Shown: positions 746 through 14,599, counted from the first letter of the stretch. The stretch: DNA of 64,000 bases from Byssovorax sp. (GCA_025362495.1 JANYGI010000178.1:1-64000), one strand, 5' to 3'. The notes: a model not told the origin generated them from the letters alone. Made by a program: numbers and translations.

Positions 746-2221
746 TCAGATCCGCTTCGTCCTCCCTCCACGGTCCTTTGCGGCCGGCGGCGGCGGCGGG
801 ACCAGGCCTTCCACGCTCCCCACGTGCCGCACCGGCCCGAGGCCGCCGAGCGCGCGGCCGACCTCGGCAACGCGCTCTTCGGTCTGGTTGCGACCGCGCA
901 TGTCACCCAGATAGCCATCCAGGGTGCTCGTCCCCTCCAGGATCGTCAGCGCGCCGAGCAACACATCGATGATCGATCGCGGATCGTCGATGCGCAGGAT
1001 CCGCTCGGCCGGGATCACCGTCGCCCACTGCTTCAGGATCACGTCGTCCGAGTACTGGGCATAAGGATCGTCGGCTCTGGCCGCGGGCGCGGGGCGCTTG
1101 GCCGCGGGATCGTGGTCGAACTCGTACACGACGACGTTGCTCGCCGGGCCGGTCTCGCCGCTCCGGGACACGGTGCCCTCGAAGTGCTTCACCTCGCCGC
1201 CGACCTCGATTTCGAGGCGAAAGTCGGTCGGCGTCTGGACAGGCTCCTTGAAGCCGTAGTTCTGCACCATGACGCGATAGCGGCCCTTCGGGGCGGTGCC
1301 CCTGGCCCAGCGCACGTTCTCGACCGGCTTCGCCGTCTCGCCCTGGATGTTCATGTCCACGTCGAGCCAGCCGCCGCAGGTCGACTTCTTGTGGCCGTAA
1401 AAGACCTCTTCGCCCGACGGCGGGATGACGTGGAGATCGAGATCGTTGCGGTTGTTCCAGAGGAGCGAGGCCCGGATGTCGACGTTGGCGTACTGGCCAC
1501 CTGCGGCCTCGACCCGGGTCTTGATCTCGGCGTCGATGTCGGCCTTGCGCTGCTCGATTCCCTTGTTCGGGTAGATGAAGAGCACGTGGAACTTCTCGTG
1601 GAGGCGGCGGAAGGCCTCGGCCGAGTCGAGATCGGCGGGGAGCTCGTCGCCGATGACGCGGCGGACCTGCTCGCGATCGACCTTCGGATAGAAGCCCTCG
1701 TCGCCGACGAAGAAGAAATACCCCTTCTTGCCGGTGCCTTTGGCGAGCCGCACGGCGTTGGTGCGCGAGTAGAAATAGGCGCAGAGCTCGTAGGACTCCT
1801 GCCCGGTGCCGCCGCCGCCCTCCTCGATCCAGACGCGCCCGAGGTTCTCGTCCATGCGGTTGTCGCCCTCGAACTGGCTCACCTGGAGGGGCGCCGCGTC
1901 GACGGTGGCGTCGCCGATCGCCGCGAAGCTGATACCCGGGTTGGGCACGTAGCCCTTGAGCTCGATCTGCCCCATCAGCATGGGAAGCTTCTCGTACATC
2001 AGCTTGGTGTCGTCACCGCGAGAGCGGGTGACGTCGAGCGCGACGACGATGGGCGTCTCGTTGTTGACCTCGCGCTTCTTGCCGAAGGGATCGAGCGCGG
2101 CGTGCACCGCCCGCCGCGTGGCCTCGCCGGCGCCGGGCGCGTGGGCGTCGAACGCGAAGGCGTCGGTCGTCGTCGAGCGGAACGTCTGCGCGACGTCTTG
2201 ACTGTAGAATCCACCACCCAT
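746..2221 (-). CDS. vWA-like domain plus DUF2135/YfaP-type domain protein
   Basis: A 491-residue cytoplasmic protein (no signal peptide). Residues about 55-225 look like a von Willebrand A fold: after a hydrophobic strand there is D63-V-T-R-S, a MIDAS-type D-x-T-x-S motif. Residues about 250-355 match the DUF2135/YfaP pattern (WNNRNDLDLHV...PSGEEVFYG...GGWLDVDMN). The C-terminus (about 390-491) is helical and ends in a Pro run and basic residues. A strong Shine-Dalgarno (AGAGGAG, about 10 nt upstream) supports the ATG at 2221. It starts 18 nt after the stop of the zinc-ribbon pseudokinase gene, so the two are surely co-transcribed. vWA proteins paired with kinase-like and zinc-ribbon proteins are typical of Ter-like stress or conflict modules. 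That role is an inference here. Confidence 0.8.
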   Translation of the reverse strand: MGGGFYSQDVAQTFRSTTTDAFAFDAHAPGAGEATRRAVHAALDPFGKKREVNNETPIVVALDVTRSRGDDTKLMYEKLPMLMGQIELKGYVPNPGISFAAIGDATVDAAPLQVSQFEGDNRMDENLGRVWIEEGGGGTGQESYELCAYFYSRTNAVRLAKGTGKKGYFFFVGDEGFYPKVDREQVRRVIGDELPADLDSAEAFRRLHEKFHVLFIYPNKGIEQRKADIDAEIKTRVEAAGGQYANVDIRASLLWNNRNDLDLHVIPPSGEEVFYGHKKSTCGGWLDVDMNIQGETAKPVENVRWARGTAPKGRYRVMVQNYGFKEPVQTPTDFRLEIEVGGEVKHFEGTVSRSGETGPASNVVVYEFDHDPAAKRPAPAARADDPYAQYSDDVILKQWATVIPAERILRIDDPRSIIDVLLGALTILEGTSTLDGYLGDMRGRNQTEERVAEVGRALGGLGPVRHVGSVEGLVPPPPPAAKDRGGRTKRI

Positions 2222-2239
2222 GTTTCAAACTCCTCTGGT

Positions 2240-3688
2240 CTAGACGTCGAGAGCCACGAACTCGTGAGATCCAAAGACCTCTTCACGCAGGTTGTCGAGC
2301 TGCTTGTACATGTCCCACGCGTCGCCGGGGCGCCCGAGGGCGCTCTCGACGACGAAGAAGCGGAGGAAGCGCTGGACCCGCGGATCGATGGAGTCGGGCA
2401 GCGCGTTCGTCGCGGGATCGCCGCCGGCCGCGTAGATCATCGATTTGCCGAGCGAGTAGAGATCCGAGCTCGGCAGAGGGGGCTTGTGGTTGCGGGCCTC
2501 GGGAGGGCCATAGTCCTCGTTGAGGCAGCGGAACGTCTGCCCCGTCTTCGCGGGCTCGACGATGGCCCACGACCAGTCGACCAGCCACACGTTGTGATCG
2601 TGGGGGCGAACGACGATGTGCGCCGGCTCGACGTTCCCGTGGAGGATGCCATTCGAGTGCGCCCAGCCGAGGACGCTGAGCACCCGCCGCATGATCCAGA
2701 TGAGGTGCCTTTGCGGGACGCCGCCGGGGAGGCGCTCGCGCAGCGTGCAGACGTCGAGCCCGTCGAGGCGCTCGAACACCGTGCCGGTGCGATCGTCCGC
2801 GGTGCGCACCTGATCGAGCACCACCGGCAGGTGCTTTTGCTGCGGGCTCGCCACGGCGGTGAGGCGCTGGAGCGTGCGGACCTCGGCCTGGATCAGATCG
2901 TTGTCGGCGGCGTCGTCAGCGAGCTTGAGCACCACCTCTGCCTCCCGGCCGGCCGCCGGCGGTGTTCGCGAGCCGCCGTAGACCGTCGCCAGATCGCCGC
3001 GCGCTACCACGCTCGTCATGCGGTAGGAGCCGCCCTGGGCCTTGACCTCGAAGTCGACGGGCGCGGGCGCCGCGAGGCTCGCGGAGGTTGCACTCGAGGC
3101 CTCGGCGCGCGTCGCGGGCGTGGAGCCGACGAGCGTGAGGCCGATGGGGCGCCACTCGCCGTCGGCGTCGGTGATCACGCCGCCGTCGGCGTCGACGCCG
3201 AACGTGCTCCCGCTGTTGTCGATCACGCGCGCGCCGCTCTGATCGATGTTGACCACCTGGACGCGGGGCGCGCCGCCGATGCGGAACTGGATGGCTTCGA
3301 GGCGATGCTCTCTCGTCGCGCCGTCGGCCTCGGCGCAGTGGAGCGCGCCCCGGAGCTCTTCGTAGCCGGCCATCGAGGGGACGACGAAGATCGAGATCAC
3401 CGACGTTTGCCCGGCGGCGAGCGGCGTCGCGGCCGCGCCCGTGAGCGCGCCGAGGGCGCCCGCGTCGCACCGGATCTCGAGGCGCGTGAGGGGCGCGAGA
3501 CCGAGGTTCTCCACGCGCAGACGGAGCATGCAGCGGGTGCCGACCTCGAAGCGCCGGAGCGTGACGAGATCGAGGCTGAGGCCGACGGCGATGGGGTGTG
3601 CCTCCGCAGGCCGCTCGGCTCCGCATTTGCCGCAAAACGCAGCCCCGGGGCGGATCGGATCGGCACATTTGGCGCACGTGGTGGTCAT
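2240..3688 (-). CDS. Zinc-ribbon, beta-sandwich, kinase-fold (probable pseudokinase) protein
   Basis: 482 residues. An N-terminal zinc ribbon has C5, C8, C19 and C22. A predicted beta-rich domain follows (about 35-150), then a low-complexity linker and a Ser/Thr-kinase fold (about 218-460). The kinase part keeps a degenerate Gly-rich loop (VVARGDLATVYGG), the beta-3 lysine (VVLK255) and a candidate helix-C glutamate (E269). The catalytic loop reads HGNVEPAHI (350-358) instead of HRDLKPxN, so the catalytic Asp is Asn. The DFG position reads VDWSW (370-374). Phosphotransfer is therefore doubtful and a scaffolding or nucleotide-sensing role is more likely. It is the first gene of a two-gene minus-strand operon and diverges (97 bp) from the SPFH/zinc-ribbon gene, which also starts with zinc ribbons. 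Confidence 0.8.
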   Translation of the reverse strand: MTTTCAKCADPIRPGAAFCGKCGAERPAEAHPIAVGLSLDLVTLRRFEVGTRCMLRLRVENLGLAPLTRLEIRCDAGALGALTGAAATPLAAGQTSVISIFVVPSMAGYEELRGALHCAEADGATREHRLEAIQFRIGGAPRVQVVNIDQSGARVIDNSGSTFGVDADGGVITDADGEWRPIGLTLVGSTPATRAEASSATSASLAAPAPVDFEVKAQGGSYRMTSVVARGDLATVYGGSRTPPAAGREAEVVLKLADDAADNDLIQAEVRTLQRLTAVASPQQKHLPVVLDQVRTADDRTGTVFERLDGLDVCTLRERLPGGVPQRHLIWIMRRVLSVLGWAHSNGILHGNVEPAHIVVRPHDHNVWLVDWSWAIVEPAKTGQTFRCLNEDYGPPEARNHKPPLPSSDLYSLGKSMIYAAGGDPATNALPDSIDPRVQRFLRFFVVESALGRPGDAWDMYKQLDNLREEVFGSHEFVALDV

Positions 3689-3785
3689 CGGCGACTGCCC
3701 TCGTGATACACGACGAGAGGCCGCGCGGTGAAGACCGACCGGGAATTTTTCCCTGGAATGCGGCTCCCCGCGTCACGGAGCACCG
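3689..3785. promoter_or_regulatory. Divergent intergenic region of the zinc-ribbon module
   Basis: This 97-bp gap separates the starts of the divergent pseudokinase (minus) and SPFH (plus) genes, so it should carry both promoters and any shared operator. On the plus side GGAG precedes the ATG at 3786 by about 6 nt. No clear -35/-10 pair or palindrome stood out. Confidence 0.5.
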
Positions 3786-6206
3786 ATGTCGAAGATGCCT
3801 TGCACGAGCTGTGGCCAGCCCAACGAGCCCGGCACCCGCTTCTGTACCCGCTGCGGTCACAACCTCGAACCGCGCGCCCACTGCCCGAGCTGCAACCACG
3901 CTCAGGCCGCGGGGAATCAGTTCTGCATGAGCTGCGGCGCGGCGATGGCGGGCGCGCGCTGGGAGCCGACGGATGACGGCGGCGCGGTGATCGGCGGCGT
4001 GTGGGAGCGCGGCGCGGACGAGCTGATCCGGCGCGTCGATCCCGAGGACTGCCGCACCTTCCTCGGCTCACGCACGGTGCGCGTGCCCCCGGGGACGATC
4101 GGCGTGGTGCTCGTCGACGGCCTCGTCGAGCGGATCTTGCCGCCGGGCGAGCAGACGAGCGTCTCGGTGTTCGAGCGGATCACCCGGTTTTTCTCGGGGC
4201 AAAGCGGTGATCGCACCGCGCTCTACCTCGTCGATCTGCGGCCTGTGCCCGTGCCCTTCGCGGTGCAGACGCGGCCCGACAAGAGCGGCGAGGCGGCGGA
4301 GACGCAGGTCGTCGTCTCGTTCAGCCTGCAGCGCGGCGACAAGGAGGGCATCGCCTCGTTCATCGCCAACGTGCTCGGCGCGCGCGCGGCGTACACGGCG
4401 CGCGATCTCTACGATCTGGTGCGCCCCGAGGTCAGCGCGCTCGCGACGCAGGCGCTGGAGCGGCTCGGGACGAGCGGCGCGTTCACCTACGACGCGGCGG
4501 AAGCCGCCATTCGCGTGGCGCTCGAGGCGCGGCTCGCGCGCTACGGATTCACGCTCGCCGTCACCGTCGCGCCGCTGACGACGACCACGAGCCTGAGCTT
4601 CTGCCTCGGCACCGGCGAGGCGCCCGAGGTGCGCCCGTGCACGAAGTGCAGCGCCGAGCTGCCGTCGTCGATGAAGTTCTGCGATCGCTGCGGCGCGCCT
4701 CAGCCGACGATGGTGAGCCCCGCGCGGGTGTGCTCGAAGTGCTCGACGCGCGTGGCCGCGAGCGACGGGTTTTGCAGCGCCTGCGGCACGATCTTCGTCG
4801 CGCCTCCGGCCACGGCGACGCCGCTCTTCACGGCCGACGGCGCCCGCGTGGAGATCGATCTCGTGGTGCGCGTGCAGGGCCAGCACGCCGACTTCACGGC
4901 CGAAAAGCTGGCGATCCCGCTCGTCGGGGCCGTCGCCGCGCACCTGCGCACCGTGACGTTCGCCGCGCTGGCGACGGCCGCGGGCTTCGCTGCGGCGGAG
5001 CAGGCGATCCGCGATGTCGCCGAGCAGGGCCTCGGGAGCTTCGGGCTCGTGCTGGTGGTCGCGGCGGTCGTCGACGTGCGCGACAAGCGCGGGCAGTGGA
5101 TCCTCGGCGCGCGGGCCGATCTCGCGCGCGCCCGCGACGAGGTGCTGCTCGGCCGCGAGTGGCTGAAGCAGCGCGCCGACGCCATCGATCTGGAAGAGCT
5201 GACGTTCGCGCAGAAGCTCGCGGCGCAGCGCGTGGAGCGTGAGGCGCGGCTCACGTCGCGCGCGGCCGAGCTCGAGGGCGGCCGTCGCGAGGCGGCGATC
5301 GTGGCCGACGACGCGTTCGGAAGAGATGAGGCGACGCTCGACGATCGCCGGCGGAGAGAGGCCCTGGAGGCCGCGCAGGCCGAGCTCGACAGCGCGCGGG
5401 CCGAGCGAGGCGCCTCGCGCGATCGCCGCGTCGCCGCCGCCGAGCAGTCGGTGGAGCTTGCAAAGAAGGCTTTTCGACGCGAAGGCGAGCTCGGCGATCA
5501 GGCCCACGCGGCGACGCTCGCGCGCGGCGCGCTCGATCTCGAGGCGGAGAAGCGCCGGCAAGCGATCGATCTCGGCTCGGAGGCGGCGCGGCGCGGCACC
5601 GAGGACGCGGCGCACGCGGCGCGGGCGCAGCGCGCCGTGGCCTTCGACGATCACGCGCGAAGAGCGCATCTGAGCGAGGAAATTGCGGCCGCAGAGCAGG
5701 CGCGAAAGCTGGCGAAGCTCGCGGCGATGGCCGAGCTCGATCGGAAGATGGCTGAAGAAGAGCACGCGCAGAAGCGCGAGCTGCGCGAGTCGCTCAAGGG
5801 CCTGTCGGAGCGCGAGATGATCGCCGCGCAGGCGACGGACCTCGCGAAGACCGAGGGCGGCGGGGCGGCCTGGGCCGCGGCGCTCGCGGGCGACGAGGCC
5901 CGGCGCGTGGCCGCCGAGCACGCGGCGAAGCTCGAGAACGTGATGGCGCAGCAGCTCGAGCGGCTCGAGCACCTGACGACCTCGGCGCTGGCGTCGGCCG
6001 CGCAGCGCGCCGGCGGCACCGATCACGTCTACGAGAGCTCGATGGAATCCATGGCGCGCGTGGCCGCGTCGCGCGCGGCACCGACGCCCGCGGTCGTCGC
6101 GGCGACGGTGACGGCCGCGCCGGGCACGGCTTGCAAGAACCCCGCGTGCCGCGCCGTGCTCGCTCCCGGCTCGCTCTTCTGCGGCACGTGCGGCGCGTCG
6201 CAATGA
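3786..6206 (+). CDS. SPFH-like coiled-coil protein with five zinc ribbons
   Basis: 806 residues. Two zinc ribbons sit at the N-terminus (C6/C9/C20/C23 and C33/C36/C47/C50). An SPFH/band-7-like domain covers about 60-280 (VPPGTIGVVLVDG..., followed by a helical segment of the flotillin type). Two more zinc ribbons lie at about 284-335. A second alpha/beta domain (about 345-440) resembles the end of an SPFH unit. A long Ala/Glu/Arg coiled coil covers about 445-750, and a fifth zinc ribbon ends the protein (CKNPAC...CGTC, about 783-803). No transmembrane segment is evident. SPFH proteins oligomerise at membranes; here ribbons at both ends suggest a large cytoplasmic scaffold. It faces the pseudokinase/vWA operon and is followed 16 nt later by the PurA paralogue. 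The exact function is unknown. Confidence 0.8.
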   Translation: MSKMPCTSCGQPNEPGTRFCTRCGHNLEPRAHCPSCNHAQAAGNQFCMSCGAAMAGARWEPTDDGGAVIGGVWERGADELIRRVDPEDCRTFLGSRTVRVPPGTIGVVLVDGLVERILPPGEQTSVSVFERITRFFSGQSGDRTALYLVDLRPVPVPFAVQTRPDKSGEAAETQVVVSFSLQRGDKEGIASFIANVLGARAAYTARDLYDLVRPEVSALATQALERLGTSGAFTYDAAEAAIRVALEARLARYGFTLAVTVAPLTTTTSLSFCLGTGEAPEVRPCTKCSAELPSSMKFCDRCGAPQPTMVSPARVCSKCSTRVAASDGFCSACGTIFVAPPATATPLFTADGARVEIDLVVRVQGQHADFTAEKLAIPLVGAVAAHLRTVTFAALATAAGFAAAEQAIRDVAEQGLGSFGLVLVVAAVVDVRDKRGQWILGARADLARARDEVLLGREWLKQRADAIDLEELTFAQKLAAQRVEREARLTSRAAELEGGRREAAIVADDAFGRDEATLDDRRRREALEAAQAELDSARAERGASRDRRVAAAEQSVELAKKAFRREGELGDQAHAATLARGALDLEAEKRRQAIDLGSEAARRGTEDAAHAARAQRAVAFDDHARRAHLSEEIAAAEQARKLAKLAAMAELDRKMAEEEHAQKRELRESLKGLSEREMIAAQATDLAKTEGGGAAWAAALAGDEARRVAAEHAAKLENVMAQQLERLEHLTTSALASAAQRAGGTDHVYESSMESMARVAASRAAPTPAVVAATVTAAPGTACKNPACRAVLAPGSLFCGTCGASQ

Positions 6207-6222
6207 TGGCGGCGCGGCGCGC

Positions 6223-7590
6223 GTGAGCGGCGGGCGGGCGCTCCTCGTCGTCGGCCTCGGGCTCGGCGATGAGGGCAAAGGCTCCGTCGTTGACGCCCTG
6301 GTACGACGTCACCAGGCGGCGACGGTGGTGCGCTTCAACGGCGGTCCGCAGGCCGCGCACCACGTCGTCTCGCCGGAGGGGAAGCTCCACTGCTTCTCGC
6401 AATTCGGCGCGGGGACGCTGGTCCCCGGCGTGCGCACGCACCTCGGGCGCTTCATGGCCGTCGATCCGCTCGCCCTCGCGCGCGAGGACGCGGCGCTGCG
6501 GGCGATCGGCGTGAGCGATGCTCTCGCGCGCCTCAGCGTCGATCCGCGCTGCGTCGTCGTCACGCCGGTGCACCGCGCGATCAACCGGATCCGCGAGCTC
6601 GCGCGGGGCGAGGCGCGCCATGGCAGCGTCGGCATCGGCGTCGGCGAGGCGCTGCTCGATGCGGAGAACGCGGCGCTGCCTTGCGTGCGCGTGGGCGACG
6701 CGCGCGATCCCGGGCGCCTCGGGGCGACGCTCCGCTTGCTGTGGCGGATGAAGATCGATCACGCCGAGCAGCTCGCCGCGCGCGGGAAAAACGCCGCGAT
6801 CGATCGCGAGCTGGCCTCGCTGCGTCGCCCCGAGCCGAATGAGCTGCTCGCGGCGTCGCTCGATCACCTGGTCCACGCGAGCGGCGCCTCGCTCTCCGAG
6901 GGCCCGGCCCTGGACGCCGGCAGAGTGACAGTCTTCGAGGGCGCGCAGGGCGTGCTGCTCGATCGCGATCACGGCTTCTTCCCCCACGTCACGCCGAGCC
7001 GGACCACCTTCGCCAACGCCGATGCTCTGCTGGCCGAGGCGCCGCGCGCCCTCGCGGTGACGCGGATCGGCGTGCTCCGGGCCTACGCGACCCGCCATGG
7101 AGAGGGCCCCTTCGTCACCGAAGACGCGGCGCTCACCGCGACGACTCCCGATCTCCACAACGGGGCAGCCGGCTTCCAGGGTGCCTTTCGCGTCGGCTGG
7201 TTCGACGTGGTCGCCGCGCGCTACGCCCTCCGCGTCGTGGGCGGCGTCGACTGGCTGGCGATCACCAACCTCGATCGTTTGGCCGGCCTGGCGCGCGTGA
7301 AGGTGTGCACGGCGTACGCGAGCGACGATGGTGGCGGGATCCTCCATGATTTGCCGATGAATTGCGGCGCACCAGCGATGTCGCCGGAGGCTGGCTCGGC
7401 GCTCACCCTGCTCCTGTCACGGTGCCGCCCCGTGTACACCGAGCTGCCCGGCTGGCGGTCGTCTGGCGATGTCGCGGCGAGCGCGTTCCTGCGCTTTCTG
7501 GAGTCGCCGGCGGCGCTGGGGACGCGCGTTGGAATGGCCTCGTGGGGGCCGCGCGCGGGGGACAAGGCTGCTATAGAGTGCTTGCAATGA
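6223..7590 (+). CDS. Divergent adenylosuccinate-synthetase (PurA) paralogue
   Basis: 455 residues, GTG start 16 nt after the SPFH gene. The PurA fold is clear: GDEGKG (15-20, with the Asp13-equivalent D16), an H46 equivalent of catalytic His41, FEGAQG (238-243), TRHGEGPF (290-297), GWFD and LPGW. Substrate-binding segments are strongly altered. The canonical GGxNAGHT is GGPQAAHH. The IMP-binding TTGRGIGPAY segment is GSVGIGVGEA. The aspartate/IMP loop GATTGRxRR is GAAGFQGAFR (314-323). The guanine-binding TKLD is TNLD. A housekeeping purA is expected elsewhere, so this copy probably couples a different nucleotide/amine pair, or binds without catalysis. It shares an operon with the SPFH gene and the downstream lipoprotein gene. 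Confidence 0.8.
   Translation: MSGGRALLVVGLGLGDEGKGSVVDALVRRHQAATVVRFNGGPQAAHHVVSPEGKLHCFSQFGAGTLVPGVRTHLGRFMAVDPLALAREDAALRAIGVSDALARLSVDPRCVVVTPVHRAINRIRELARGEARHGSVGIGVGEALLDAENAALPCVRVGDARDPGRLGATLRLLWRMKIDHAEQLAARGKNAAIDRELASLRRPEPNELLAASLDHLVHASGASLSEGPALDAGRVTVFEGAQGVLLDRDHGFFPHVTPSRTTFANADALLAEAPRALAVTRIGVLRAYATRHGEGPFVTEDAALTATTPDLHNGAAGFQGAFRVGWFDVVAARYALRVVGGVDWLAITNLDRLAGLARVKVCTAYASDDGGGILHDLPMNCGAPAMSPEAGSALTLLLSRCRPVYTELPGWRSSGDVAASAFLRFLESPAALGTRVGMASWGPRAGDKAAIECLQ
7571..7576 (+). promoter_or_regulatory. Possible -10 element (CTATAG) close to start
   Basis: CTATAG ends 10 nt before the ATG at 7587, inside the last codons of the PurA paralogue. It matches a pattern seen before many other starts in this window and could give the lipoprotein gene its own, nearly leaderless transcript. 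No -35 was identified. Confidence 0.35.
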
Positions 7591-11336: not shown

Positions 11337-12794
11337 CTAGAGATCGCCGCCGACCACGCGTCCCGTCGGCGCCGTCTTCACCACCGCCGTGGCGGTGGCC
11401 GTCGGCGTCGTGGCCGTCTTCGTCTTCACGAGCGGACCACCGAGGCGCGCCGTGGGCGCGGCAGTTTCGATCGGCGCAGCCGTCGCCGTGACGACGGGCG
11501 TGGGCGCGGCCGTCGCCGTGAGCGCGACCGTCGGCGCCGCCGTGGGCTTCGCCGTCGGCGTGGTCGTGGCGACGGCGCTCGTCGTGGCCGGGACCACCGG
11601 CGCGGGCTTCGCCCCGAACAGGCGGTACGCACCGAAGGCGCCGGCCGCGACGAGGAGCACGCCGAGGAAGCCGACAGCCATCATCGCCCCGCTCTTGCGC
11701 GGCTGCGGCGCCGTCATCGCCAGGCCGTTCTGGGACGCCGCGAGCGGGCCGCCCGACTGCGCGAAGCCACCGCTCGGCGAGCTCTGTCCGAGGCCTGTCC
11801 CCGAGGCCGCGCCGCTGACGCCGAGCTGGCCCCCGAGATCGATCCCGCTGGCCATGCCCGGGTTGCTGAGCATGAAGCCCGGGGCGCTCGCGCGCATGCC
11901 CGGCGGGCCGTTGAGCACGCCGCCCATCCCGTCGGGCGCGGCCGTCATCAGCCACTGACCGACGGCCTGCTGGAACTCTTGCGCCGTCTGGAAGCGGCCC
12001 GCGGGATCGCGCACCATGGCCCGCACGATCAGCGCTCCGAACGCGGGATCGAGCCCCGGCGTCACCAGCTCGGCCGGCTCGCACGACTCGAGCGCGATCT
12101 TGAAGACCAGCTCGTTGAACGTCTCGGCGTGGAAGGGGACGCGCCCCGTGACCGCCTGGTAGATCACGACGCCGACCGAGTAGAGATCGCTGCGCGTGTC
12201 GACCTTGCCGCCGCGCGCCTGCTCGGGCGACATGTAGAACGGCGTGCCCATGACGGCGCCGGTGCGCGTCATGCTCATCTCGCTGTCGAGCGCGTTGAAC
12301 TTGCTGACGCCGAAATCGAGGACCTTCACGAAGTCCTTCTGGCCGCCCTTGCTGTTCATCAAGAACACGTTGTCGGGCTTGAGATCGCGGTGAATGATCC
12401 CGGCCGCGTGCGCCGCCGCGAGCCCCTCGAGGAGCTGATGGAGCAGGTGCCCGACCTCGTGCGGCGAGAGGCGCTTCTTGCGCTTGATGCGCTCCCCGAG
12501 GCTCTCGCCGTCGAGGTACTCCATCACCATGAAGCGGTCGCCTTCGGGCAGGTTGCCGAGATCGAGCACCTCGACGATGTGCTCGGAGCCGATGCGGCCC
12601 GCGGCCTGCGCCTCGCGCTCGAAGCGCTGCACGACGTCGGCCTTCGCGGCGACCGCGGCGTGGAGCACCTTGATCGCCACCTTGCGGTGGATGCGGACGT
12701 TCTCGCCTTCGTAGACGGCGCCCATACCGCCTTCGCCCAGCAAGCGGACGATGCGGTACTTCCCTTCGATCGTGTCACCAGGCTGCAGGCTCAT
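11337..12794 (-). CDS. Transmembrane Ser/Thr protein kinase (PknB type)
   Basis: 485 residues from the ATG at 12794; the frame is open further upstream but the kinase begins here. The cytoplasmic kinase domain (about 13-285) is complete: LLGEGGMGAVY, K42, HRDLKPDN (135-142), DFG (160-162) and MSPEQ. A Gly/Ser-rich juxtamembrane segment leads to one membrane helix (about 370-390). The outside part is only an Ala/Thr/Pro-rich tail ending RVVGGDL; there are no PASTA or other sensor domains. It is a tandem paralogue of the next kinase, which ends in nearly the same tail. It should phosphorylate cytoplasmic targets, possibly FHA proteins. Confidence 0.9.
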   Translation of the reverse strand: MSLQPGDTIEGKYRIVRLLGEGGMGAVYEGENVRIHRKVAIKVLHAAVAAKADVVQRFEREAQAAGRIGSEHIVEVLDLGNLPEGDRFMVMEYLDGESLGERIKRKKRLSPHEVGHLLHQLLEGLAAAHAAGIIHRDLKPDNVFLMNSKGGQKDFVKVLDFGVSKFNALDSEMSMTRTGAVMGTPFYMSPEQARGGKVDTRSDLYSVGVVIYQAVTGRVPFHAETFNELVFKIALESCEPAELVTPGLDPAFGALIVRAMVRDPAGRFQTAQEFQQAVGQWLMTAAPDGMGGVLNGPPGMRASAPGFMLSNPGMASGIDLGGQLGVSGAASGTGLGQSSPSGGFAQSGGPLAASQNGLAMTAPQPRKSGAMMAVGFLGVLLVAAGAFGAYRLFGAKPAPVVPATTSAVATTTPTAKPTAAPTVALTATAAPTPVVTATAAPIETAAPTARLGGPLVKTKTATTPTATATAVVKTAPTGRVVGGDL

Positions 12795-12901
12795 CGCGGA
12801 CTTCTCGGAAACTGGGGTGTGCCGGCCGGGAAACGCATGAATGCGGCCCGGCGTAACGGGCATACATACGCCCGACCCGCCTCGGACACCCCATGATACG
12901 G

Positions 12902-12950
12902 GGACGGGCGGGCCCGTCCAGAGATCATGCCGTCTTTCAGGGCTGAAAGA
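12902..12950. promoter_or_regulatory. Pair of 18-bp palindromes between the two kinase genes
   Basis: GGACGGGC-gg-GCCCGTCC (12902-12919) and TCTTTCAG-gg-CTGAAAGA (12933-12950) each have two perfect 8-bp arms around a GG spacer, 13 bp apart. They sit after the stop of the upstream kinase (13007) and about 110-155 bp before the start of the downstream one. They may be transcription terminators or binding sites for a dimeric regulator. Confidence 0.45.
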
Positions 12951-13006
12951 TCGCTGGGGGCCGTCCGCCGCTGCTGCACGGCGCTCTGCCCGTTCGCTCG
13001 GCGCGA

Positions 13007-14599
13007 CTACAGATCGCCGGAGACGACGCGCTTTCCCGTCGGCGATGGGCCCACGGGCCCTCCACCGAGTTTGCCTGTGCTCTTCGGCGCGACGCCGGTG
13101 GGCGCGGGGCGCGCGGTGGTGCCGGGGCGCACCGCGACGCCGACGGGATCGACGGGCGGCGCCACGGCGACCGGAGCGCTCGTGGGCTCGGTCGCGGCCG
13201 CCGAAGGCCTGGCCGGCGCGAGGACCGGTGTCGTCGCGATCGTGGTCGACGTCGCGACGATGGGCGCGGTCGGGCGCGTTGTCTTCCACTTGATCATCGC
13301 GACGACGCCGCCGCCGATCACCAGCACCGCGAGCAGCCCGCCGACGAAGGCCAGAGCGCCGCCGCCCTGCTTCGGCACCCTGTACGCCTCCTCGGGGAAC
13401 GCCGGCGCCCCGTTCCCCGGAGCCGGCATCGGAGCGAAATAGCCTTGATTTTGCGGCATTCCAGCGCTCTGCGCCGGCGGGGCCGTGGCCGCCTCGAAGC
13501 CGGGCGGCATCACCGGGAACGCCTGCGTCGACGGGGGCTCGCGCGGCGGCGGCGGCGCTTGCGGGGCGCCGGGCGCGGCCCATGGCCGCTGCGGCGCGGG
13601 CGCGCGAGGCTCCATCGCCACGGTGCGCGCGTTGTCGAGATCGAGCGACTGCGCGCCCGGCCCCGGCGAAGGATCCATCAGCATCGTCCCGCCGATACCG
13701 AACGAGCCAGGCATCCCCGGGCCGGCCGACACCGGGCGATCGAGCCAGTACATCAGGATCGACCTGAACTCTTCCGCCGTCTGGAAGCGCTCGCCCGCCT
13801 CGCGCGCCATCGCCTTGTGGATGATCGCCGTGAAGGCCGGATCGAGGTTCGGAACGAAGGACTCCACCGGCGGCGGCGACTCGAGCACGATGCGGAAAAT
13901 CAGCTCGTTGAACGTCTCGGCCGAGAACGGGACCTGGCCTGTGATGCACTCGTAGAGGATGACGCCGACCGCGTAGAGATCGCTCCGCGAGTCGATCCCG
14001 CGCGAGCCCTTGGCCTGCTCGGGCGACATGTAGTAGGGCGTTCCGAGCACGGCGCCGGTGCTCGTCATGCTCATCTCGTCGTTGAGCACGTTGAACTTCG
14101 AGACCCCGAAATCGAGGATCTTCACGAAGTCGACGCCGCCGGCTTTCTTGCCCGTCAGAGGGCAGAGATAGATGTTCGCGGGCTTGAGATCACGGTGAAT
14201 GATCTCGGCCTTGTGCGCCGCGCCGAGGCCTTCGAGGAGCTGGCAGACGATCGGTGTCGCCTCCTCGGGGGTGAGGCGCCCGCGCGATCGGATCCGCTGA
14301 TCGAGGGTGGTGCCTTCGAGGTACTCGAGGACCATGAAGCGCGAGCCGTCGGCGAGCTCGCCCAGGTCGAGCACCTCGACGATGTGCTGCGAGCCGATGC
14401 GCCCCGCGGCCTGGGCCTCGCGCTCGAAGCGCCGGAGCGTGTCGGCCTTCTCGGCGATCTGCGGGTGGAGGATCTTGATGGCGACGCGCCGCCGGATCCG
14501 CGTGTTCTCCGCCTCGTAGACCGCGCCCATCGCTCCCTCGCCGAGGAGGCGCACGATGCGGTACTTGTCGGCGTAGATTTGCCCGAGTGTGAGCTGCAT
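13007..14599 (-). CDS. Transmembrane Ser/Thr protein kinase (PknB type), paralogue
   Basis: 530 residues. The kinase domain (about 12-290) has LLGEGAMGAVY, VAIK, HRDLKPAN, DFG and MSPEQ, so it should be active. Its sequence is very close to the kinase encoded at 11337-12794 (for example the shared RRFEREAQAAGRIGS and HIVEVLDLG blocks), which indicates tandem duplication. A Pro/Ala-rich segment, one membrane helix (about 405-428) and an outer Ala/Pro/Thr tail ending KRVVSGDL follow. The gene diverges from the DUF1343 gene with a 95-bp gap. Confidence 0.9.
   Translation of the reverse strand: MQLTLGQIYADKYRIVRLLGEGAMGAVYEAENTRIRRRVAIKILHPQIAEKADTLRRFEREAQAAGRIGSQHIVEVLDLGELADGSRFMVLEYLEGTTLDQRIRSRGRLTPEEATPIVCQLLEGLGAAHKAEIIHRDLKPANIYLCPLTGKKAGGVDFVKILDFGVSKFNVLNDEMSMTSTGAVLGTPYYMSPEQAKGSRGIDSRSDLYAVGVILYECITGQVPFSAETFNELIFRIVLESPPPVESFVPNLDPAFTAIIHKAMAREAGERFQTAEEFRSILMYWLDRPVSAGPGMPGSFGIGGTMLMDPSPGPGAQSLDLDNARTVAMEPRAPAPQRPWAAPGAPQAPPPPREPPSTQAFPVMPPGFEAATAPPAQSAGMPQNQGYFAPMPAPGNGAPAFPEEAYRVPKQGGGALAFVGGLLAVLVIGGGVVAMIKWKTTRPTAPIVATSTTIATTPVLAPARPSAAATEPTSAPVAVAPPVDPVGVAVRPGTTARPAPTGVAPKSTGKLGGGPVGPSPTGKRVVSGDL

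What the first reader, a model, noticed from the sequence alone, without database searches (positions are those of the whole stretch)
746..7590. Zinc-ribbon / pseudokinase / vWA / SPFH module with a nucleotide-ligase-like partner
Two divergent units face each other across 97 bp: a zinc-ribbon pseudokinase plus a vWA-DUF2135 protein, and an SPFH/coiled-coil protein with five zinc ribbons plus a PurA paralogue. The shared zinc ribbons on both sides suggest one complex. vWA, kinase-like and zinc-ribbon proteins combine in Ter-like stress/conflict systems, but I do not know this exact set with SPFH and PurA. A membrane- or nucleotide-sensing defence or stress complex is a reasonable hypothesis.
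Basis: partly seen in the sequence, partly recalled or inferred. Interest (0 to 1): 0.75.

Follow-up and report, generated by a model that had tools for sequence, protein, structure and literature searches.

The report
Conserved pseudokinase–vWA–PurA-like cassette with SPFH
Four neighbouring genes in a myxobacterial-type genome belong to one undescribed gene system: a dead-looking kinase, a metal-site adaptor protein and an altered copy of a purine-making enzyme, a trio that recurs in many bacteria and phages, and here joined to a membrane-scaffold protein; what it makes or protects against is not known.

Summary
The four genes are real and belong together. The core is a zinc-ribbon or J-domain pseudokinase, a vWA protein and a PurA paralogue. 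PurA-likes flank the vWA gene in 163 of 165 retrieved loci from Actinomycetota, Myxococcota, Pseudomonadota and phages, about 190 mycobacteriophages among them; many actinobacterial copies add an NrtR-like Nudix regulator. The window carries a Myxococcota subtype. Its vWA has a DUF2135-like domain inserted, and the cassette faces an SPFH1–SPFH2–coiled-coil protein with five zinc ribbons. Six genomes hold close relatives of this SPFH protein, and all six hold all four genes; in four they are linked in the same divergent layout. Two of these, and a cassette-less SPFH locus, also carry a Peptidase_C25 (caspase-like) gene. The kinases lack the HRD aspartate. The PurA-likes keep GTP and catalytic residues (D13, H41, Q224, D333) but have rebuilt the aspartate pocket and lost R143, so they are probably active on other substrates. 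I found no published description in the open library. Best guess: a GTP-dependent PurA-type ligase making an unknown product, recruited by vWA and pseudokinase, anchored here by a flotillin-like scaffold. Defence is possible but untested; no PADLOC model identifies it.

The parts
746..2221 (-). vWA protein, 491 aa. vWA fold about residues 54-235 plus 392-465, with MIDAS motif DVTRS (D63, T65, S67); a DUF2135-like beta domain inserted at about 240-385. Family motifs PLQVxQFE, GGGGxxxESYEL, GYxFxxGDE.
   Evidence: DUF2135-inserted vWAs form one clade (SH-aLRT 97)
2240..3688 (-). Zinc ribbon (res. 4-25), Ig-like beta region (about 30-215), pseudokinase (about 217-425): beta3 Lys kept, HRD -> HGN, DFG -> DWS. 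482 aa.
   Evidence: SPFH-type kinases form one clade (SH-aLRT 99)
2222..2239 (-). 18-bp spacer with a Shine-Dalgarno-like sequence (AGAGGAG, minus strand) before vWA; kinase and vWA look co-transcribed
   Evidence: sequence
3689..3785 (.). 97-bp divergent intergenic region (presumed two-way promoter)
   Evidence: divergent layout conserved in G188, G199, G379, G264
3786..6206 (+). SPFH1-SPFH2-coiled-coil scaffold protein, 806 aa, five zinc ribbons: two N-terminal, two inside SPFH2, one C-terminal
6223..7590 (+). PurA-like (adenylosuccinate synthetase paralogue), 455 aa, GTG start; GTP and catalytic residues kept, Asp/IMP pocket altered

Best explanation
One functional system. SHOWN by comparison: pseudokinase, vWA and a PurA-family enzyme form a conserved cassette, and in a Myxococcota subtype it is coupled to an SPFH/zinc-ribbon protein. 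INFERRED: the PurA-like protein is an active enzyme that uses GTP to phosphorylate an oxygen on a purine-like substrate and replaces the phosphate with an amine, as PurA does with IMP and aspartate. Its substrates are not IMP plus aspartate, because the aspartate pocket and the IMP-phosphate arginine are rebuilt. The vWA protein (metal-dependent peptide binding) and the pseudokinase (nucleotide or peptide binding without ordinary phosphotransfer) act as adaptor and sensor that bring client or trigger to the enzyme. In the window type, the SPFH1-SPFH2-coiled-coil protein forms a flotillin-like oligomer, probably at the membrane, that clusters these partners through zinc ribbons; some relatives add a C25/caspase-like protease as a likely output. 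NrtR-like Nudix regulators in Actinomycetota suggest that expression follows a nucleotide or ADP-ribose-type signal.
For: 163/165 vWA loci have a PurA-like within 4.5 kb, 116 a detected kinase, 81 a Nudix gene. Order-wide, 18 of 21 PurA-paralogue genomes have vWA next door. Annotated examples: Tsukamurella and Rhodococcus plasmids, Allorhizobium pAtS4e, mycobacteriophage Tonenili. Four-gene subtype. PurA-likes split from housekeeping PurA at 100/100 with branch 1.92, and SPFH-type PurA-likes form one clade. Residues in 167 PurA-likes: D13, H41, E221, D333 invariant where aligned and Q224 in all but one; N38->Q, V273->H, T301->Q invariant or nearly so; Arg303 missing; R305->F/W; R143 lost. In PurA, R303 contacts the IMP ribose and aspartate (PMC8342488). 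Pseudokinase motifs. SPFH and vWA folds. C25 protease. NrtR wHTH.
Against: No biochemical or genetic data. No substrate identified. The 80 actinobacterial loci are mostly close relatives (Nocardia, Rhodococcus), so counts overstate independence. Pocket residues are read from an alignment, and the gap at R303 can slide by one or two positions. SPFH oligomerisation and membrane contact were not modelled, and no transmembrane or lipid-anchor segment was tested. The C25 protease is absent from the window's genome. The NrtR-like gene was not found beside the cassette in the Myxococcota loci scanned for it.
Confidence: 0.5

Rival explanations
1. Stress or phage-conflict signalling system: infection or envelope damage is sensed by the vWA, pseudokinase and SPFH proteins; the PurA-like enzyme makes a nucleotide signal; an effector such as the C25 protease responds.
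For: Zinc ribbons, vWA, inactive kinase, caspase-like and FGE domains are typical of the conflict systems in PMC7159879. C25 sits between SPFH and PurA-like in G188 and G199, and FGE-domain proteins with the same ZnR/Ig-like N-terminus sit beside the G075 SPFH gene.
Against: No PADLOC model identifies the components. In many Nocardia genomes the cassette lies near chromosomal housekeeping genes (secDF, apt and rel by sequence), unlike a defence island. No effector in the window. The cassette also occurs in lytic phages.
Confidence: 0.3
2. Nucleic-acid or nucleotide modification: the PurA-like enzyme modifies a purine (free nucleotide, DNA or tRNA), comparable to PurZ in 2-aminoadenine phages.
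For: PurA fold with intact GTP/catalytic core; frequent carriage by phages; loss of the 5'-phosphate arginine fits a different nucleotide or polymer substrate.
Against: Far below the PurZ model (40.8 bits, cut-off 300). No other base-modification gene recurs next to it. A vWA and a pseudokinase are not needed for known base modification.
Confidence: 0.2
3. Assembly-chaperone role: the vWA protein and (J-domain) pseudokinase are a metal or protein maturation factor like MoxR-vWA pairs, with the PurA-like protein as GTP switch or client.
For: vWA plus J-domain kinase in actinobacteria, phages and G047; an AAA_5 ATPase follows the vWA gene in G047.
Against: An AAA gene next to the cassette was seen in only two loci (G047 and Allorhizobium). 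Conserved D13/H41/Q224 argue for catalysis rather than a mere switch.
Confidence: 0.15

Closest known systems
Adenylosuccinate synthetase PurA (E. coli PurA, PDB 1ADE)
   Same: Fold over the whole length; P-loop, D13, H41, Q224, T239, D333, C-terminal GP
   Different: About 38% identity to housekeeping PurA; rebuilt aspartate loop (T301->Q, Arg303 missing, R305->F/W), R143 lost, V273->H, N38->Q; separate clade; genome keeps its own PurA
PurZ (2-aminoadenylosuccinate synthetase of Z-genome phages)
   Same: A PurA paralogue carried by phages
   Different: PurZ model score 40.8 against cut-off 300; different partners
GAP1-N2 GTPase-centric systems with ZnR-kinase, PP2C and vWA (Kaur et al. 2020, PMC7159879)
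   Same: Zinc-ribbon kinase with beta-rich domain next to a standalone vWA
   Different: Kinase there is described as active and comes with PP2C and GTPase/GAP1; here it is inactive by motif and comes with a PurA-like enzyme
MoxR-vWA and iSTAND/VMAP conflict systems
   Same: vWA component; C25/caspase-like and FGE domains nearby in relatives
   Different: No MoxR ATPase among the window genes; AAA seen only in G047 and Allorhizobium
Ter stress systems
   Same: vWA proteins with nucleotide chemistry as a theme
   Different: No TerB/C/D, TelA, PRTase or ATP-grasp match in the four proteins
YdjFGHI / YdjI SPFH-PspA system of B. subtilis (PMC8581546)
   Same: Bacterial SPFH protein working with partner proteins in envelope stress
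   Different: No PspA partner seen; long coiled coil, five zinc ribbons and a PurA-like partner here
Flotillin, prohibitin, stomatin, major vault protein
   Same: SPFH domains followed by long coiled coil
   Different: Only fold-level similarity; zinc ribbons inserted in SPFH2

Membership tests
PurA (adenylosuccinate synthetase) | Catalytic Asp13 and His41, Q224, GTP-binding D333 | tested here: met
   kept in essentially all 167 PurA-likes where aligned, incl. window
PurA (adenylosuccinate synthetase) | Aspartate/IMP pocket: T301, R303, R305, R143 | tested here: not met
   T301->Q, R303 missing, R305->F/W, R143 lost; housekeeping copies keep them
PurA (adenylosuccinate synthetase) | Score above the PurA equivalog cut-off | tested here: not met
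   178.9 against 395.55 (TIGR00184), 210.1 against 402 (NF002223)
PurZ | Score above NF038379 cut-off 300 | tested here: not met
   40.8 bits
Active Ser/Thr protein kinase | HRD catalytic Asp and DFG Asp | tested here: not met
   HRD Asp replaced (N/A/other) in all but at most one of 103 sequences; DFG Asp kept in the SPFH type (DWx) and most viral copies, Gly in most others
vWA domain | vWA fold with DxSxS-type MIDAS | tested here: met
   model Z about 15 to I-domains; DVTRS, D and S invariant
DUF2135 (PF09906) | Score above cut-off 22 | tested here: not met
   16.6 bits, best hit in the genome
SPFH / flotillin-like | SPFH/Band_7 fold followed by coiled coil | tested here: met
   window Pfam E 0.027 below cut-off, orthologue L274 5e-9 above cut-off; model Z 12 to stomatin SPFH
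Ter system | TerC/TerD/TelA/biosynthetic enzymes in the locus | tested here: not met
   no such Pfam match in the four proteins; rest of genome not tested
TerY-P / ZnR-kinase-PP2C-vWA triad | Active kinase plus PP2C phosphatase | tested here: not met
   kinase inactive by motif; no PP2C among the four genes
MoxR-vWA system | Adjacent MoxR AAA+ ATPase | tested here: inconclusive
   none among the window genes, but the contig ends left of the vWA; AAA_5 next to vWA in G047
YdjFGHI/PspA system | PspA partner gene | not tested
   no PspA search was run
Known anti-phage defence system (PADLOC) | Component models matched specifically | tested here: not met
   no specific match; only generic kinase hits for the pseudokinase

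The most novel reading that the evidence does not exclude
A new class of nucleotide-chemistry system: the PurA-like enzyme makes a previously unknown amino-conjugated purine signal or nucleic-acid mark under control of a vWA/pseudokinase sensor. In Myxococcota it is organised on a flotillin- or vault-like SPFH cage and can drive a caspase-like protease. Phages carry the cassette to make or intercept the same product.
Probability: 0.2. Interest if true: 0.9.

Novelty: categorically new. Interest (0 to 1): 0.66.

Why it matters
A gene cassette shared by hundreds of bacterial genomes and about 190 sequenced mycobacteriophages has no described function. Each phage member is at best labelled kinase, hypothetical protein or '2-aminooxy adenylosuccinate synthetase'. 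The conserved catalytic core with a rebuilt substrate pocket makes a concrete prediction: a PurA-type ligase with a new substrate. Mycobacteriophages and Rhodococcus are tractable, so the question can be tested directly. The SPFH subtype would link nucleotide chemistry to a membrane scaffold.

Tried and rejected
I first noted loss of the catalytic His (GGHNAGH -> GGPQAAH); mapping to E. coli mature numbering showed H41 is the second His and is kept in all aligned sequences, so 'dead enzyme' was dropped (the early notebook entry is wrong on this). PADLOC hits to PD-T4-6 and MkoA for the pseudokinase are generic kinase-fold similarity and were not used. The MTase_II near G379 is one isolated neighbour. 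Literature searches for PurA-like, vWA, kinase, NrtR, SPFH and vault combinations found no description; PMC10892097 merely lists such words in gene tables of Vi01-like phages. Looking for a conserved additional neighbour in actinobacterial loci gave only lineage-specific chromosomal genes. The full-length SPFH genome search failed and was repeated with its N-terminal half.

Full report
WHAT IS IN THE WINDOW. The window is the left end of contig C220 of an unnamed 10.8-Mb draft genome in 240 contigs. Four genes stand as described: vWA protein 746-2221(-), zinc-ribbon kinase-like protein 2240-3688(-), SPFH protein 3786-6206(+), PurA-like protein 6223-7590(+). Their codon-position GC is typical of real genes. 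The two units diverge from a 97-bp gap. The kinase-to-vWA spacer (18 bp) holds a ribosome-binding-like AGAGGAG. Left of vWA there is one small lipoprotein-like ORF and then the contig end, so anything further left is unseen.

DOMAINS. The vWA protein has no Pfam or NCBIfam match, but its model (pLDDT 75) matches integrin I-domains and other vWA proteins at Z 14-15 over 170-200 residues. The matching segments are residues 54 to about 235 and 392-465. The stretch between is a beta domain that weakly resembles DUF2135 (16.6 bits, cut-off 22, best hit in the genome). It is therefore an insertion inside the vWA fold. The family-conserved tryptophan of ordinary members reappears at W399, after the insertion. 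The kinase-like protein has an N-terminal zinc ribbon, an Ig-like beta region and a kinase fold. Across 103 relatives the HRD aspartate is replaced (HGN in the SPFH subtype, mostly HGA elsewhere), with one possible exception among viral copies. DFG is DWx in the SPFH subtype and GWS in most others. The beta3 lysine is kept in nearly all. The SPFH protein models as SPFH1-SPFH2 followed by a coiled coil from residue 442 to about 764, with ribbons at the N-terminus, inside SPFH2 and at the C-terminus. Best structural matches are prohibitin, stomatin, flotillin, HflK/C and major vault protein. The window's own Pfam Band_7 score is below cut-off, but its orthologue L274 passes (E 5e-9). The fifth ribbon and the pairwise CxxC motifs are visible in the sequence.

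THE CASSETTE IS WIDESPREAD. Searching the order for the PurA paralogue found 21 genomes with a copy clearly closer than housekeeping PurA; in 18 a vWA relative lies next to it. Nearly all of those read in detail have the order kinase, vWA (often two vWA genes), PurA-like on one strand. The same order is annotated in Tsukamurella and Rhodococcus plasmids, followed by a Nudix gene, in Allorhizobium plasmid pAtS4e, and in mycobacteriophage Tonenili. In 165 loci gathered with the vWA family, 163 have a PurA-like gene within 4.5 kb, 116 a detected pseudokinase and 81 a Nudix gene. These counts are not independent: the 80 genome loci are mostly Nocardia, Rhodococcus and relatives. About 190 mycobacteriophage records carry the PurA-like gene. 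The Nudix gene of Rhodococcus matches the NrtR winged helix weakly. NrtR relatives are known to sense ADP-ribose (PMC9503650). Pseudokinases of Rhodococcus, phages and G047 carry a J-domain-like N-terminus in place of the ribbon.

THE FOUR-GENE SUBTYPE. In 379 genomes of the phylum, close SPFH relatives (at least 52% identity) occur in five genomes besides the window's: G188, G199, G264, G295, G379. All five also have the kinase orthologue (47-57%), a DUF2135-type vWA (63-66%) and the PurA paralogue. The vWA family is present in only 42 of 379 genomes, so five hits in five would be expected with probability near 2e-5 if independent (my arithmetic). In G188, G199 and G379 all four genes are linked, with kinase-vWA on one strand and SPFH...PurA-like on the other, as in the window. 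G264 and G295 are split over contigs. Remote SPFH relatives (G075, G346, G361) lack the other three genes. G136 has kinase, DUF2135-type vWA and PurA-like in a row without SPFH, and G182 has a DUF2135-type vWA beside a standard operon; these look like intermediates. The subtype's PurA-likes, vWAs and kinases each form one clade (the kinase and vWA groups include the SPFH-less G047 copy), which supports joint inheritance. G188 and G199 add, between SPFH and PurA-like, a roughly 90-residue protein and a Peptidase_C25 (caspase-like) protein; the same pair follows SPFH in G075, where FGE-domain proteins share the kinase's N-terminal layout. For L274 the C25 assignment rests on homology to L273 and L064, since it has no Pfam match itself. 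The window's genome has no C25 relative.

THE ENZYME. The PurA-like family separates from housekeeping PurA with full support and a long branch (1.92 changes per site), and the genome keeps an ordinary PurA (C166). With E. coli mature numbering, D13 (base), H41 (acid), E221 and D333 are invariant where aligned, and Q224 in all but one; the window keeps all of them. N38 is Gln and V273 His throughout where aligned; T301 is Gln in nearly all. The R303-R306 stretch is one residue shorter and has lost Arg303, and R305 is mostly Phe or Trp. R143 is gone. In PurA, R303 touches the IMP ribose and the aspartate (PMC8342488); the roles given for D13, H41, D333 and R143 are from general knowledge of PurA. 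I read this as a working GTP-dependent enzyme with other substrates. The exact gap position in the loop is uncertain, and no substrate is proposed with confidence. The PHROG name '2-aminooxy adenylosuccinate synthetase' is a label, not a test.

MECHANISM. Shown: the co-occurrence, the folds, the residue pattern. Inferred: catalysis on an unknown substrate, an adaptor role for vWA and pseudokinase, scaffolding by the SPFH protein, and regulation by nucleotide-type signals. Defence is plausible by domain vocabulary (PMC7159879) but is not shown. No PADLOC model identifies the components, and in Nocardia many copies sit near chromosomal housekeeping genes.

NOVELTY. The library searched holds open-access papers only. 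In it I found no description of a pseudokinase-vWA-PurA system or of the SPFH subtype. Defining features of Ter, kinase-PP2C-vWA and PurA/PurZ families were tested and not met; MoxR-vWA is inconclusive. I rate it categorically new, with the caution that paywalled work could change this.

Noticed in passing
L098 4730-8197 (mycobacteriophage Tonenili); about 190 mycobacteriophage records: Lytic mycobacteriophages carry the whole kinase-vWA-PurA-like cassette near the terminase gene; PHROG labels are phrog_3043, phrog_2971 and phrog_1211.
   Followed up: partly
L097 11372-12019, L096 11407-12039: NrtR-like Nudix regulator with a degenerate Nudix box follows the PurA-like gene in actinobacteria.
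   Followed up: partly
L273 11680-13128, L274 5328-6779, L064 5511-7184: Peptidase_C25/caspase-like proteins next to SPFH genes; preceded by a roughly 90-residue DUF5818-like protein.
   Followed up: partly
L064 3174-5261, 10731-12590, 15148-16830: Three proteins combining zinc ribbon, short helical module, Ig-like region and (by Pfam for one, by sequence for the others) an FGE-sulfatase domain around a divergent SPFH gene.
   Followed up: no
L044 5042-5839 (G047): AAA_5 (dynein/MoxR-like) ATPase directly after the DUF2135-type vWA in a locus without SPFH or PurA-like; the vWA reading frame there looks broken in two.
   Followed up: no
L100 10324-16591 (Allorhizobium pAtS4e): Cassette sits next to AAA ATPase, DUF5682 and DUF4132 genes (Yeh-like cluster).
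   Followed up: no
Kuttervirus, Klebsiella and Caulobacter phages, phrog_1735: The inserted DUF2135-like domain alone has relatives in many phages that lack this vWA.
   Followed up: no
L294 740-6167 (G182): A DUF2135-type vWA beside a vWA-kinase-vWA-PurA-like operon, possibly an evolutionary intermediate.
   Followed up: partly
window 11337-14599: Two related Ser/Thr kinases in tandem with intact HRD/DFG motifs downstream of the cassette.
   Followed up: no
viral loci L216-L261: A divergent, mostly low-scoring viral group of vWA plus PurA-like, several without a detectable kinase.
   Followed up: no
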